This document shows, one piece after another, positions 30,960 to 34,054 of a stretch of DNA of 64,000 nt. The notes under the pieces are model-generated. The model made no database searches, was not told the origin of the DNA, and was given only the letters and a program-made list of their open reading frames with translations. Origin of the DNA: Hyphomicrobiales bacterium (lineage in GTDB: Bacteria; Pseudomonadota; Alphaproteobacteria; Rhizobiales; Methyloligellaceae); contig JANQLP010000126.1 in the NCBI GenBank assembly GCA_028280515.1, positions 1 through 64,000 on the forward strand, given 5' to 3'. The position numbers were made by a program, and so were the translations under genes. Position 1 is the first letter of the stretch. Each line of letters opens with the position of its first letter.

Positions 30960-31925
30960 ATGCACATCAGGATACCGAAGGGTTGGGAGCTCCCGGAGCG
31001 ATTGGCGACACCCGAAGACGTATTTCTCAACCGCCGAACCTTTCTCGCCGGAAGCGGCTCGATTGCAGCCGTGAGCGCGTTGCCCGGAGCGGCTTTTGCC
31101 GCACCGCAAGATGCTGACCCGACCGCCGACCTCTACCCGGCGCAGCGCAACGCCAAGTATCAGATACAGCGCCAGCTGACGCCCGAAAGCGTTGCCTCCC
31201 GGTACAACAATTTCTACGAGTTCGGTTCGCACAAGAAGATTCATGAGGCGGCGCAGGCTTTGCCGATCCGCCCATGGGAAGTTGCGATCGACGGTGAGGT
31301 GGAAAAACCGTTCAAGATCAGCATCGATGACCTGATCCGCAAAATGACTCTCGAGGAGCGGTTGTATCGCCACCGGTGCGTCGAGGCCTGGTCCATGACC
31401 GTTCCGTGGTCCGGCTTTCCGATGAAGGACCTGGTTGAGCTGGCGAAGCCGCTTGCCAAGGCGAAGTATGTCCGGATGGAGACATTCAAGAATCCGGAAA
31501 TTGCCCGAGGCCAACGCGCCTCGTGGTATCCTTGGCCCTATGTTGAAGGCCTGACGATCGAGGAGGCGACCAACGAGCTCGCATTCATGGTGACCGGCGC
31601 GTACGGCAAGCCCATGGCCAAGCAGTTCGGCGCACCGATGCGCCTCGCCGTTCCCTGGAAGTACGGCTTTAAACACATCAAATCCATCGTGCGTTTCACG
31701 TTCACGGATGAGCGGCCGAAGAGTTTCTGGGAGATTGTCCAGGGCAAGGAATACGGGTTCTGGGCGAACGTGAACCCGGAAGTGGATCATCCGCGCTGGA
31801 GTCAGGCGACGGAACGGGTGCTGGGCACGACCATTCGGGTGCCGACGTTGAAGTACAACGGTTATGGCGACTTCGTCGCGCAGTTGTACACAGGCATGGA
31901 AGGCGAGCGCACGACCTGGATGTAA
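30960..31925 (+). CDS. msrP: Protein-methionine-sulfoxide reductase catalytic subunit MsrP
   Basis: This 321 aa protein follows GGGAGAGAAG. It begins with a twin-arginine signal (LNRRTFLAGSGSIAAV, residues 23-38) that exports the folded molybdoenzyme. The molybdopterin Cys is in LYRHRCVEAWSM, C140 by my count. GAYGKPMAKQFGAPMRLAVP and KYGFKHIKSIVRFTF are further YedY/MsrP signatures. It reduces methionine sulfoxide in periplasmic proteins. Its usual haem-membrane partner MsrQ is not next to it; the following gene is on the opposite strand and unrelated. Confidence 0.93.
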   Translation: MHIRIPKGWELPERLATPEDVFLNRRTFLAGSGSIAAVSALPGAAFAAPQDADPTADLYPAQRNAKYQIQRQLTPESVASRYNNFYEFGSHKKIHEAAQALPIRPWEVAIDGEVEKPFKISIDDLIRKMTLEERLYRHRCVEAWSMTVPWSGFPMKDLVELAKPLAKAKYVRMETFKNPEIARGQRASWYPWPYVEGLTIEEATNELAFMVTGAYGKPMAKQFGAPMRLAVPWKYGFKHIKSIVRFTFTDERPKSFWEIVQGKEYGFWANVNPEVDHPRWSQATERVLGTTIRVPTLKYNGYGDFVAQLYTGMEGERTTWM

Positions 31926-31948: not shown

Positions 31949-32800
31949 CTATCCAGCCAGCAGTGTGTCGAGATAGCGCGCCGTTTCGTCGGCGAGAACG
32001 TCCCTGTGGAGACGGTCCTTCTCGGCAAACACGGCCTGCGACGCATGGGCGTCCAGCATCAGGGTGCCCAACCGCTCCAGCGCCAACTCAACGTCGTCCC
32101 CTTCATAGTAGACGAGTCTACGGTCGCCTTGTTCGGGCGTATGCAGCACGCGTGAAAAATACTGCAGGAAAAGCTCGCCCTGCCGCGCCATGTAGTTTCC
32201 CAGCACAAGCACCCACAGCGATTCCCATTCCTGTGCTGATAGGAGTTCGGTGCGAATCCTGGTGACGCGCTCATGACACGCATCGAGCTGGGCCCGCGCG
32301 GCCCCGGCGAGCGCCACATTGATGTCTTCTTCCGACTCCCGCGCGAATGCGCCGAGTTCGTCCGGTTTCGCGCAACCGGCATCGAGCACGGCATCCATGA
32401 ACGTGATGCAGCGGTCCAACAGGTGAACCGGCGTGTCGAGAAGGCCGGCGCGGAGTTCTTTCTCCGGATCGATGTCTGCGGACGCAGCCTTCACCGCGTC
32501 AGCATACGCGGCAAGGTCGCGCAGTCTGGGCGCTGGCAATGGCTCTCCATTTGCCACGTCGCCCAACAGACAGAGAATGGCCATCGGTATGTGCCCGTTG
32601 GTCTTCAGCCTGTCATAGGCCTCCGGCCGCATTCCGCTAAACACCCGAACGCGCTTTCCGGCGTGATGCAGCCGCATCTCGTCCCCGACCAGGACTAACA
32701 ATCCCTTGGTCTTCTGGTCGTCAATGACGCGCTGACGCGCGTGCTCGTAAATCTCGACAAAACGGTCGTCGACTCGCTTCAAGGCCGGGGGCTCACCCAT
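31949..32800 (-). CDS. Conserved hypothetical protein, 283 aa
   Basis: The start at ATG 32798-32800 (MGEPPALKRVDDRFVEIYEH) has GGAG 8 nt upstream; a longer frame adds an unlikely N-terminus. The protein looks soluble and largely helical, with an RFVEIYEHARQRVIDDQ opening and a long helical middle (LLDRCITFMDAVLDAGCAKP). There is no signal peptide, membrane span or known catalytic motif. It lies downstream of the sRNA candidate and its terminator on the same strand, so it needs its own promoter. Function unknown. Confidence 0.7.
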   Translation of the reverse strand: MGEPPALKRVDDRFVEIYEHARQRVIDDQKTKGLLVLVGDEMRLHHAGKRVRVFSGMRPEAYDRLKTNGHIPMAILCLLGDVANGEPLPAPRLRDLAAYADAVKAASADIDPEKELRAGLLDTPVHLLDRCITFMDAVLDAGCAKPDELGAFARESEEDINVALAGAARAQLDACHERVTRIRTELLSAQEWESLWVLVLGNYMARQGELFLQYFSRVLHTPEQGDRRLVYYEGDDVELALERLGTLMLDAHASQAVFAEKDRLHRDVLADETARYLDTLLAG

Positions 32801-32878
32801 GTGCAATGCTCCGTGGTTCGGCTTGTGCGATATGCGTATCGTCTGCGCGTTTCTGTAGGGCAAAGCTGAGCAGGGTGG

Positions 32879-32916
32879 CAAAAGAAAAAGCCGGACCAGT
32901 TGGCGTGGCCCGGCTT
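32879..32916 (-). terminator. Rho-independent terminator of the sRNA candidate
   Basis: On the minus strand AAGCCGGGCC, a 9 nt loop and GGTCCGGCTT are followed by TTTTCTTT. It is over 240 nt past the lsrB stop and ahead of the next gene, so it ends a separate transcript. Confidence 0.85.
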
Positions 32917-33034
32917 CACTTCATTTTGCCGCTCCAGGGGGGTAGAGCGCCAAAGTTGCGACCGCGAACGGACCTTGCGGTCCTTGAAGGCATCTAAAGG
33001 GAGGAAGACGAGCCTTCTGTTCGCGATCACAGAT
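32881..33034 (-). ncRNA. Candidate AbcR-like small RNA beside lsrB
   Basis: Between lsrB and the next minus-strand gene lies a complete transcription unit without a convincing ORF. It has TTGTTG (33063-33068), a 16 bp spacer, TAAACT (33041-33046), an inferred start near 33034, and a strong terminator ending at about 32881. The transcript carries a CU-rich segment (CTTCCTCCC) able to pair with ribosome sites, and a GGACCGCAAGGTCC hairpin. In several rhizobia the tandem AbcR sRNAs lie near the LsrB/VtlR gene and are controlled by that regulator. The identity rests on position and architecture, not on sequence comparison. Confidence 0.55.
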
Positions 33035-33086
33035 GTCCGGAGTTTAAGCATTTGGTGCAGCGCAACAAGTGTCCGGCGCGCATGGC

Positions 33087-33108
33087 AGCTATGCAGAAGT
33101 GCATAGCT
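33087..33108. promoter_or_regulatory. Perfect dyad, probable LysR-type site for the sRNA promoter
   Basis: AGCTATGCA and TGCATAGCT are perfect 9 bp arms around GAAG. The centre is about 64 bp upstream of the inferred sRNA start, where LysR-type regulators normally bind. The adjacent LsrB/VtlR-like protein is the obvious candidate. Confidence 0.6.
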
Positions 33109-33163: not shown

Positions 33164-34054
33164 TCAGAAAGACCACTCGCGTGCCTTGGCGACGAGGAAG
33201 TCCCGGAACACGCTGACCCGCTTGGACTCACGGGCGCCTTCCGGATAGACGAAGTAGGTTTCGAACGCCGGCAAGTCGGCATATTTCATGACCTGCACGA
33301 GATTGGTTTCTTCGCGCGCCATGTAGTCGGGCAGAATGGCGAGCCCCAGATCCCGCTGGCAGGCACGCTTCAGGCCATACAGATTGTTGACGCGCAGGAC
33401 GGGTGCGCGCCGTTCCTTGCCGTCGCGTCCCGCTTCCTCGAGCCAGTTGATCTCGCGAATCTGTGCGGGCGTCGTGCCGCCGAACGTCAGGATCCGGTGG
33501 TTATCGAGATCCGAGAGGTCTTTCGGTGAACCGAACCGTTTGAGATATCCGCTGGATGCGTAAATGTGCAGGTGCACCGTAAACAGCCGGCGTTGAATGA
33601 GGTCTCCCTGGGAGGGTGGCCGCAACCAGATGCCGACATCCGCCTCGCGCATGGTCAGATCGAGCTGGTCGTATTCCAGAATGAGCTCGACCCGAATATC
33701 CGGATAGAGCTCGATGAACTCGCCGATGCGCGGCGCCAGCCACGATGAACCAAGGGCTACCGTGGTGGTGATGCGCAGATCGCCGGACGGTTTGGTTTTC
33801 GAATCGGCCAGGCGCGTCTGTGTCGCCCGCAGCTTCTCGAACACGTCGTGCGCGGTGCGATAGAGCATCTCGCCCTGTTCGGTCAGCATCAGTCCGCGCG
33901 CGTGACGGTTGAAGAGCGGAACGTTGAGTTCCTTCTCCAGAGCGCTGACCTGCCGGCTGACGGCGGACTGGCTCATTTCCAGCTTCTCACCCGCGTGGGT
34001 GAAGCTGCCGGCCTCGGCCGCCTCGTGAAAAATCCTGAGCTTGTCCCAATCCAT
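33164..34054 (-). CDS. lsrB: LysR family regulator, LsrB/VtlR-like
   Basis: This 296 aa protein has an N-terminal helix-turn-helix (MDWDKLRIFHEAAEAGSFTH; KLEMSQSAVSRQVSALEKEL) and a periplasmic-binding-like effector domain. The opening MDWDKLRIFH-AAEAGSFTHAG and RHARGLMLTEQGE match what I know of rhizobial LsrB and Brucella VtlR. As in those genomes it lies directly downstream of trxB (30 nt gap), so the two probably share a transcript. LsrB responds to oxidants in Sinorhizobium, and VtlR controls AbcR2 and small-protein genes in Brucella. One Cys (KRACQRDLG) is visible in the effector domain. Confidence 0.88.
   Translation of the reverse strand: MDWDKLRIFHEAAEAGSFTHAGEKLEMSQSAVSRQVSALEKELNVPLFNRHARGLMLTEQGEMLYRTAHDVFEKLRATQTRLADSKTKPSGDLRITTTVALGSSWLAPRIGEFIELYPDIRVELILEYDQLDLTMREADVGIWLRPPSQGDLIQRRLFTVHLHIYASSGYLKRFGSPKDLSDLDNHRILTFGGTTPAQIREINWLEEAGRDGKERRAPVLRVNNLYGLKRACQRDLGLAILPDYMAREETNLVQVMKYADLPAFETYFVYPEGARESKRVSVFRDFLVAKAREWSF

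What the first reader, a model, noticed from the sequence alone, without database searches (positions are those of the whole stretch)
32881..33108. Candidate AbcR-like sRNA with a perfect LysR-type dyad next to lsrB
A full transcription unit lies in the gap downstream of lsrB: dyad AGCTATGCA-GAAG-TGCATAGCT, TTGTTG-N16-TAAACT, an inferred start 64 bp from the dyad centre, a CU-rich segment that could pair with ribosome sites, and a strong terminator. In several rhizobia AbcR sRNAs lie near this regulator and are activated by it. The coincidence of dyad position, promoter and terminator makes a regulated sRNA likely, and shows how it would be controlled in this lineage.
Basis: partly seen in the sequence, partly recalled or inferred. 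Interest (0 to 1): 0.7.

Follow-up and report, generated by a model that had tools for sequence, protein, structure and literature searches.

The report
LsrB-linked AbcR-like small regulatory RNA
Beside the gene for the regulator LsrB, a Hyphomicrobiales bacterium and the seven relatives of its genus that were searched keep a conserved DNA stretch predicted to make a folded small RNA, likely switched on by LsrB and predicted to block production of nutrient-capture proteins, in the place where rhizobia keep the AbcR RNA, although the standard AbcR family model does not recognise it.

Summary
In detail: the minus strand at 33108-32880 holds a perfect dyad, a plausible promoter, a structured ~155-nt RNA and a strong terminator. 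The unit is conserved in all 8 genomes of the genus, with compensatory base changes, and follows lsrB in two further genera. The dyad overlaps GCATAGCTGCCAT, an exact match to the published VtlR/LsrB box GCAT-N3-TG-N3-T, at -60 to -48 of the inferred start (S. meliloti PabcR1: -61 to -49). A covariance model built only from this genus finds RNAs just downstream of lsrB in other Hyphomicrobiales and overlaps 6 of 7 Rfam AbcR (ar15) places. But ar15 does not match the window RNA, which has four hairpins and a C-rich loop instead of AbcR's linker motif: it works like AbcR but is not filed as AbcR. Its first loop exposes UCCUCCC. Genes whose ribosome site is GGGAGGAA are often solute-binding proteins of transporters (18 of 42 ORFs; control site 1 of 17; 8 of 19 DctP genes). 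Most likely LsrB activates an anti-Shine-Dalgarno sRNA that represses nutrient-uptake mRNAs. Transcription, LsrB binding and repression are untested, and the ribosome-site signature could also serve other anti-SD RNAs of this genome.

The parts
33087..33108 (-). perfect 9+4+9 dyad AGCTATGCA-N4-TGCATAGCT, predicted LsrB recognition site
   Evidence: arms kept in the 8 genomes of the genus with one A/G change
33082..33094 (-). GCATAGCTGCCAT, exact match to the published VtlR/LsrB box GCAT-N3-TG-N3-T, -60 to -48 of the inferred start
   Evidence: (position); box from PMC8844928 and PMC7486931 (passages)
33052..33068 (-). TTGTTGCGCTGCACCAA, imperfect dyad over the -35 (TTGTTGCAATGCAACAA in G005); possible second LsrB contact, inferred
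33063..33068 (-). -35-like TTGTTG
   Evidence: not found by the generic promoter scan
33041..33046 (-). -10-like TAAACT (TAAATT in several relatives)
32880..33034 (-). predicted sRNA, about 155 nt; start 33034 inferred
   Evidence: fold z -7.0, covariation, conservation
33017..33032 (-). 5' element CTGTGATCGCGAACAG, short hairpin or outer stem (lowest-energy fold pairs it with a later stretch)
32986..33017 (-). hairpin SL1, GAAGGC...GCCTTC
32999..33005 (-). SL1 loop UCCUCCC, anti-Shine-Dalgarno; predicted unpaired
   Evidence: unpaired probability 1.0 at all 7 bases; CCTCCC invariant in 8 genomes
32970..32984 (-). hairpin AGGACC-GCA-AGGTCC region in the window fold; weakest helix across the genus (81% of cells paired)
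32930..32950 (-). hairpin SL3 with CCCCCC loop (32942-32937), possible second targeting loop
32880..32917 (-). intrinsic terminator, 12-pair stem and U tract
   Evidence: helix kept in 100% of cells
33164..34054 (-). lsrB/vtlR, LysR-type regulator (best PDB sequence match 9hh1)
   Evidence: 9HH1 is A. tumefaciens LsrB (PMC11975290)
34085..35047 (-). trxB, thioredoxin reductase, upstream of lsrB
   Evidence: TIGR01292 above cut-off

Best explanation
A conserved sequence unit directly downstream of lsrB has the make-up of a small RNA gene, and it is likely transcribed from its own promoter when LsrB binds the dyad about 63 bp upstream, giving an RNA predicted to act like rhizobial AbcR: its exposed UCCUCCC loop (and perhaps the CCCCCC loop) would pair with GGGAGG-type ribosome sites of solute-binding-protein mRNAs and so lower nutrient uptake. 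Shown here: the sequence elements, their conservation and covariation, the position of a published-type LsrB box, the same arrangement in relatives, and the link of the complementary ribosome site to transporter genes. Inferred: transcription, activation by LsrB, pairing and repression. The RNA body is a divergent type at the AbcR position that the ar15 model does not recognise.
For: Box and spacing as in PabcR1. Gene order trxB-lsrB-RNA as in A. tumefaciens trxB-vtlR-abcR1-abcR2; trxB directly upstream of lsrB in 78 of 80 named loci. Unit found in 8 of 8 genomes of the genus; dyad, C-rich first hairpin and terminator-like hairpins after lsrB also in G011 and G012. Covariation. Model R1, built from the genus alone: of 24 matches at E 0.05 or better outside the window, 22 are in named lsrB loci (78 of the 80 searched), all sense and starting 81-359 nt after lsrB, where about 3% would fall by chance; R1 overlaps 6 of 7 ar15 places, two of them only at E 0.21 and 0.52. 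Operator TGCATRGCTGNNATGC at 11 or more of 14 letters before 28 of 34 such RNAs (1.0% of shuffles), 27 of the 28 spaced 80-100 nt from the first CCTCC; window spacing 91. Targets: GGGAGGAA-N3-10-ATG 51 times in G000, control 7; 18 of 42 ORFs solute-binding proteins against 1 of 17 for AAGGAGGA, Fisher p 0.005; 8 of 19 DctP genes carry it; in G012 at least 16 of 28 ORFs.
Against: No expression or binding data. No sigma-70 promoter in the generic scan. ar15 and ar14 models do not match here. The box motif alone is common. In several sister species the loop reads CCCUCCC, not UUCCUCCC, yet GGGAGGAA sites are as frequent there, so the last A of the octamer is not set by this RNA. Other anti-SD RNAs occur in the genome and could explain the ribosome-site signature. 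Only 2 of 14 Peripla_BP_6 and 1 of 16 SBP_bac_5 genes carry the site. The lsrB-minus comparison is uninformative.
Confidence: 0.78

Rival explanations
1. It is a true AbcR (ar15) orthologue that has diverged past the Rfam model: same locus and operator, same kind of first hairpin, with the linker motif turned into a hairpin loop.
For: Same place and operator as ar15 RNAs; R1 overlaps 6 of 7 ar15 places; CCCCCCTGGAG resembles the AbcR core CCCCTCTGGAG.
Against: ar15 gives no match up to E 10 and none in the genus; four hairpins; the first hairpin is nearer to that of the CAGCTGTGACGGACAGCT-type RNAs, and the type-B model links G011 at E 3e-5 but the window only at E 0.22.
Confidence: 0.35
2. 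There is no separate gene: the stretch is the 3' end and terminator of the trxB-lsrB mRNA, perhaps with an LsrB site for autoregulation.
For: The RNA follows lsrB on the same strand; LsrB-dependent autoregulation of trxB-lsrB is reported for A. tumefaciens (PMC11975290); no generic promoter found.
Against: The dyad lies downstream of lsrB, not at its promoter; the dyad, the -35/-10-like boxes and the RNA body are conserved together with fixed spacing; AbcR1 at this place has its own start (passage).
Confidence: 0.08
3. The RNA is real and LsrB-linked, but the GGGAGGAA signature of transporter genes is due to other anti-SD RNAs or to plain ribosome-site strength, and its own targets lie elsewhere.
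For: An ar14-like three-loop RNA and a second lsrB-linked RNA are in the genome; GGGAGGAA stays frequent where the loop differs.
Against: Strength alone does not explain it: AGGAGG marks 1 of 17 solute-binding genes and 10 of 660 others, GGGAGG 7 of 17 and 20 of 660 (crude gene calls); the loop fits GGGAGGA perfectly.
Confidence: 0.2

Closest known systems
AbcR1/AbcR2 (alpha-r15, Rfam RF02345), S. meliloti, A. tumefaciens, Brucella
   Same: Downstream of trxB-lsrB, published-type LsrB box at the same distance from the start, anti-SD sequence in the first hairpin loop, own terminator, predicted targets among solute-binding proteins
   Different: No ar15 match; four hairpins; CCCCCC in a hairpin loop instead of UUCCCCUC in the linker; one copy found; predicted targets include TRAP and TctC transporters
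NfeR1 (alpha-r14, Rfam RF02344) and SmelA075/A099 anti-SD RNAs
   Same: Anti-SD loops; NfeR1 is LsrB-activated through a T-N11-A type site (PMC10746234, passages)
   Different: Those have three or four CCUCCUCCC loops; the window RNA has one UCCUCCC and one CCCCCC loop; no ar14 match here
lsrB-linked type-B RNAs of other Hyphomicrobiales (L048, L056, L062, L068, L081; named type B here)
   Same: Place after lsrB; GAAGG...CCCTCCC...CCTTC first hairpin; L081 also has a CCCCC-loop hairpin
   Different: Invariant 5' hairpin CAGCTGTGACGGACAGCT, only loosely matched by CTGTGATCGCGAACAG in the window
VrsA (A. tumefaciens)
   Same: sRNA activated by VtlR/LsrB through the same box (PMC7486931, passages)
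   Different: Not next to lsrB; sequence not compared here

Membership tests
AbcR (ar15) | match to covariance model RF02345 | tested here: not met
AbcR (ar15) | gene downstream of trxB-lsrB, same strand | tested here: met
   order in A. tumefaciens
AbcR (ar15) | LsrB box GCAT-N3-TG-N3-T about -61 to -49 | tested here: met
   sequence and position only, start inferred; binding not tested
[quoted passage not shown]
   in sister species CCUCCC
AbcR (ar15) | second motif UUCCCCUC single-stranded between first and second hairpin | tested here: not met
   CCCCCC sits in a later hairpin loop
AbcR (ar15) | three hairpins | tested here: not met
   SL1, middle hairpin, SL3, terminator, plus a 5' element
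AbcR (ar15) | several copies per genome (reported for Rhizobiaceae and Brucellaceae) | tested here: not met
   one place per genus genome in the DNA search; G006's two rows are pieces of one place
AbcR (ar15) | Hfq binding and repression of ABC-transporter mRNAs | not testable with these tools
   only the ribosome-site signature was tested
NfeR1 (ar14) | match to RF02344 | tested here: not met
   no match at this locus
NfeR1 (ar14) | three CCUCCUCCC loops | tested here: not met
   one UCCUCCC loop
type-B lsrB-linked RNA | match to model R2 of the 5' module | tested here: inconclusive
   window E 0.22, its best hit in the 64 kb; G011 E 3e-5, G012 0.04

The most novel reading that the evidence does not exclude
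trxB-lsrB-operator-anti-SD RNA is one ancient alphaproteobacterial module in which operator, spacing and the CCUCCC loop are held fixed while the RNA body is rebuilt or replaced between lineages (AbcR, the window type, the CAGCUGUGACGGACAGCU type, a Sneathiella type). It reads a common ribosome-site code, GGGAGG(A), on the solute-binding proteins of ABC, TRAP and tripartite-tricarboxylate transporters, so that AbcR is one local version of a wider brake on nutrient uptake.
Probability: 0.45. Interest if true: 0.72.

Novelty: new variant of a known kind. Interest (0 to 1): 0.52.

Why it matters
AbcR has been worked on in rhizobia, Agrobacterium and Brucella (papers). A sister RNA with the same apparent control but another body, plus a readable ribosome-site code on its likely targets, would carry LsrB-sRNA control of nutrient uptake into unnamed Hyphomicrobiales, would make such uptake regulons predictable from sequence, and would widen the predicted targets from ABC to TRAP and TctC-type transporters.

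Tried and rejected
Rfam matches up to E 10 in the stretch (Scr3202, ctRNA_p42d, BcKCsr2, astro_FSE, RRE) were rejected: all below gathering, the best resting on the terminator hairpin. A coding reading of the 90-aa ORF was rejected. A first alignment mixed strands and was not used. A genus-only weight matrix for the operator scored 8 or more in 10 of 76 named loci (0 of 76 coding stretches, 0 of 68 stretches further downstream, 0.4% of shuffles); it was too narrow and was replaced. For one search I took 34 rows by hand from the 57, sense matches near lsrB; dropped were the window, L117, L091, antisense rows and rows elsewhere. R2 as a membership test was inconclusive; over 297 genomes of the order it found 5 at E 0.01, not G000, and their neighbourhoods were not examined. 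The lsrB-minus control (1 solute-binding protein by phmmer in 38 ORFs of G008, G010 and G015) was set aside after only 2 such genes were found in 800 kb of G015. Site density, mean 8.7 per Mb in 8 lsrB-plus and 6.0 in 7 lsrB-minus genomes, follows kinship and is not used as evidence. One search uses a crude gene caller, and many of its G000 contigs were known to me from site or transporter lists. The DctP p value of 5e-12 assumes 5,000 genes, an estimate. One of the 51 G000 sites and four of the 38 G012 sites were not read; in G012, 9 of the 18 ORFs without a phmmer match were scanned with Pfam.

Full report
What is there. The minus strand from 33108 to 32880 carries, in order, a perfect 9+9 dyad, a published-type LsrB box overlapping its right arm (GCATAGCTGCCAT), an imperfect dyad over the -35, TTGTTG-N16-TAAACT, a structured stretch and a terminator. 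It lies between lsrB (33164-34054) and a 310-aa ORF without Pfam or NCBIfam match. trxB lies upstream of lsrB.

More than chance. The dyad is the only site in the 5.4-Mb genome with fewer than 3 mismatches and is expected 0.02 times per window at up to 3 mismatches. The short box alone is common. The RNA folds 27 kcal/mol below the mean of its shuffles. Against the reading: the generic promoter scan is empty here.

Conservation. A DNA search of 41 genomes (own plus 40 relatives) hits 9: all 8 of the genus and, weakly and over the operator only, G011. By protein, lsrB is found in 10 of 30 genomes of the family (genera g1, g5, g6) and not, at E 1e-90, in the 20 genomes of g2, g3 and g4. In G011 and G012 a dyad, a C-rich first hairpin and a terminator-like hairpin again follow lsrB. 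In the genus the dyad arms, GCTGCCATGC, CCTCCC and most of the terminator are invariant, and 10 of 35 base pairs have changes on both sides. In G007 lsrB and the RNA lie on two contigs whose ends share sequence, with a repeat-like stretch between.

Known biology used; passages only were read. LsrB activates abcR1 through a box at -61 to -49 in S. meliloti, and AbcR1/2 use CUCCUCCC in the first loop and UUCCCCUC between the first two stem-loops (PMC8844928). VtlR has the proposed box GCAT-N3-TG-N3-T and activates abcR1 and vrsA in A. tumefaciens, where the order is trxB-vtlR-abcR1-abcR2 (PMC7486931). NfeR1 has three CCUCCUCCC motifs and is LsrB-activated (PMC10746234). Brucella AbcR motifs are CUCCCA and GUUCCC (PMC5461406). 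AbcR has three hairpins, and alpha-r15 members are multi-copy in Rhizobiaceae and Brucellaceae (PMC3712013). SmelA075/A099 carry anti-SD loops (PMC3927594). LsrB cysteines and structure 9HH1 are from PMC11975290.

Relatives. LsrB was sought in named genomes (80 loci kept, more existed). trxB is directly upstream of lsrB in 78 of 80. An exact LsrB box lies within 700 nt downstream in 24 of 80. Rfam ar15 was found downstream of lsrB in 7 of the 60 loci scanned. R1, trained on the genus only, gave 57 matches at E 10 or better over 86 sources; the 22 in named lsrB loci at E 0.05 or better are all sense and start 81-359 nt after lsrB. Weaker rows include antisense matches and matches elsewhere. An operator TGCATRGCTGNNATGC precedes 28 of 34 such RNAs. 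Many of these RNAs carry the AbcR core TTCCCCTCTGGA; others, like the window's, do not.

Targets. The loop UUCCUCCC is complementary to GGGAGGAA. That octamer 3-10 nt before ATG occurs 51 times in G000 (control 7); AAGGAGGA occurs 20 times (control 7). Of 42 ORFs of 50 aa or more (50 of 51 sites read), 18 are solute-binding proteins: 8 DctP (one a short frame), 5 TctC, 2 Peripla_BP_6 and one each of SBP_bac_5, OpuAC/NMT1 and SBP_bac_6; two more are transporter permeases. Of 17 ORFs with the control site one is a solute-binding protein. By family, 8 of 19 DctP, 2 of 14 Peripla_BP_6 and 1 of 16 SBP_bac_5 genes carry the site. In G012, a second genus with lsrB and the RNA, at least 16 of 28 ORFs (34 of 38 sites read) are solute-binding proteins. 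With crude gene calls in 0.86 Mb of G000, GGGAGGAA marks 4 of 17 solute-binding genes and 3 of 660 others, while AGGAGG shows no such link.

Limits. The signature points to anti-SD RNAs in general: an ar14-like RNA and a second lsrB-linked RNA are in the same assembly, and the last A of the octamer is not tied to the loop in sister species. Transcription, binding and repression are untested. What signal LsrB would sense here is open: it has a single cysteine, whereas the proposed sensor pair in A. tumefaciens is C144-C273.

Verdict. An LsrB-controlled, AbcR-like anti-SD sRNA is the best reading. It is not filed as AbcR, because the ar15 model, the linker motif and the three-hairpin form were tested and not met. 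I found no paper on an lsrB-linked sRNA in this lineage in the listings; that library lacks most subscription journals.

Noticed in passing
L119 (G000:C86:562-1437, near a contig end): A second LsrB-like protein (50% identity) is followed by its own dyad (TTATGCATTATTTGCATGCC), an RNA-like stretch with GTCTCCCAGAC...GCCTCCCT and a terminator, then another box-like site: the whole module may be duplicated. The assembly is rated 2.4% contaminated, so the contig could be foreign.
   Followed up: partly
L096 (G000:C112:8091-8204): Three hairpins with TCCTCCC loops, ar14-like at 37 bits (cut-off 58.8), right after an ORF; no LsrB box was found in the 160 nt before exact CCTCCTCCC-type motifs scanned (that scan had no motif hit in L096).
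   Followed up: partly
L048, L056, L062, L068, L081, downstream of lsrB: RNAs with an invariant 5' hairpin CAGCTGTGACGGACAGCT and a CCCTCCC-loop hairpin; no Rfam match in the four that were scanned (L081 was not).
   Followed up: partly
window 33164-34054 and the loci: LsrB of this genus has one cysteine (C232); of 77 named orthologues readable (of 80), 45 have none, 23 one, 7 two, 2 three. The proposed C144-C273 redox pair cannot be general.
   Followed up: partly
L066, L069, L071, L073, L074, L077, L083, L085: lsrB orthologues (55-59% identity) with trxB directly upstream occur in Oceanibacterium, Kiloniella, Caenispirillum, Pelagibius, Sneathiella and Magnetovibrio, although PMC11975290 calls LsrB unique to Rhizobiales; some have dyads and C-rich hairpins downstream.
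   Followed up: partly
window 30960-31925 (+) and 33 of 80 named lsrB loci: msrP (protein-methionine-sulfoxide reductase) lies in the lsrB neighbourhood repeatedly: trxB, lsrB, RNA and msrP form a redox-flavoured cluster.
   Followed up: no
window 31949-32881 (-): 310-aa ORF without Pfam or NCBIfam match; relatives only in the loci of G003 and G001 among the genus loci and in none of the 80 named loci.
   Followed up: no
G015 (genus g2, no lsrB at E 1e-90): Only 2 solute-binding proteins were recognised in 800 kb: regulator and uptake genes may have been lost together in these family members.
   Followed up: no
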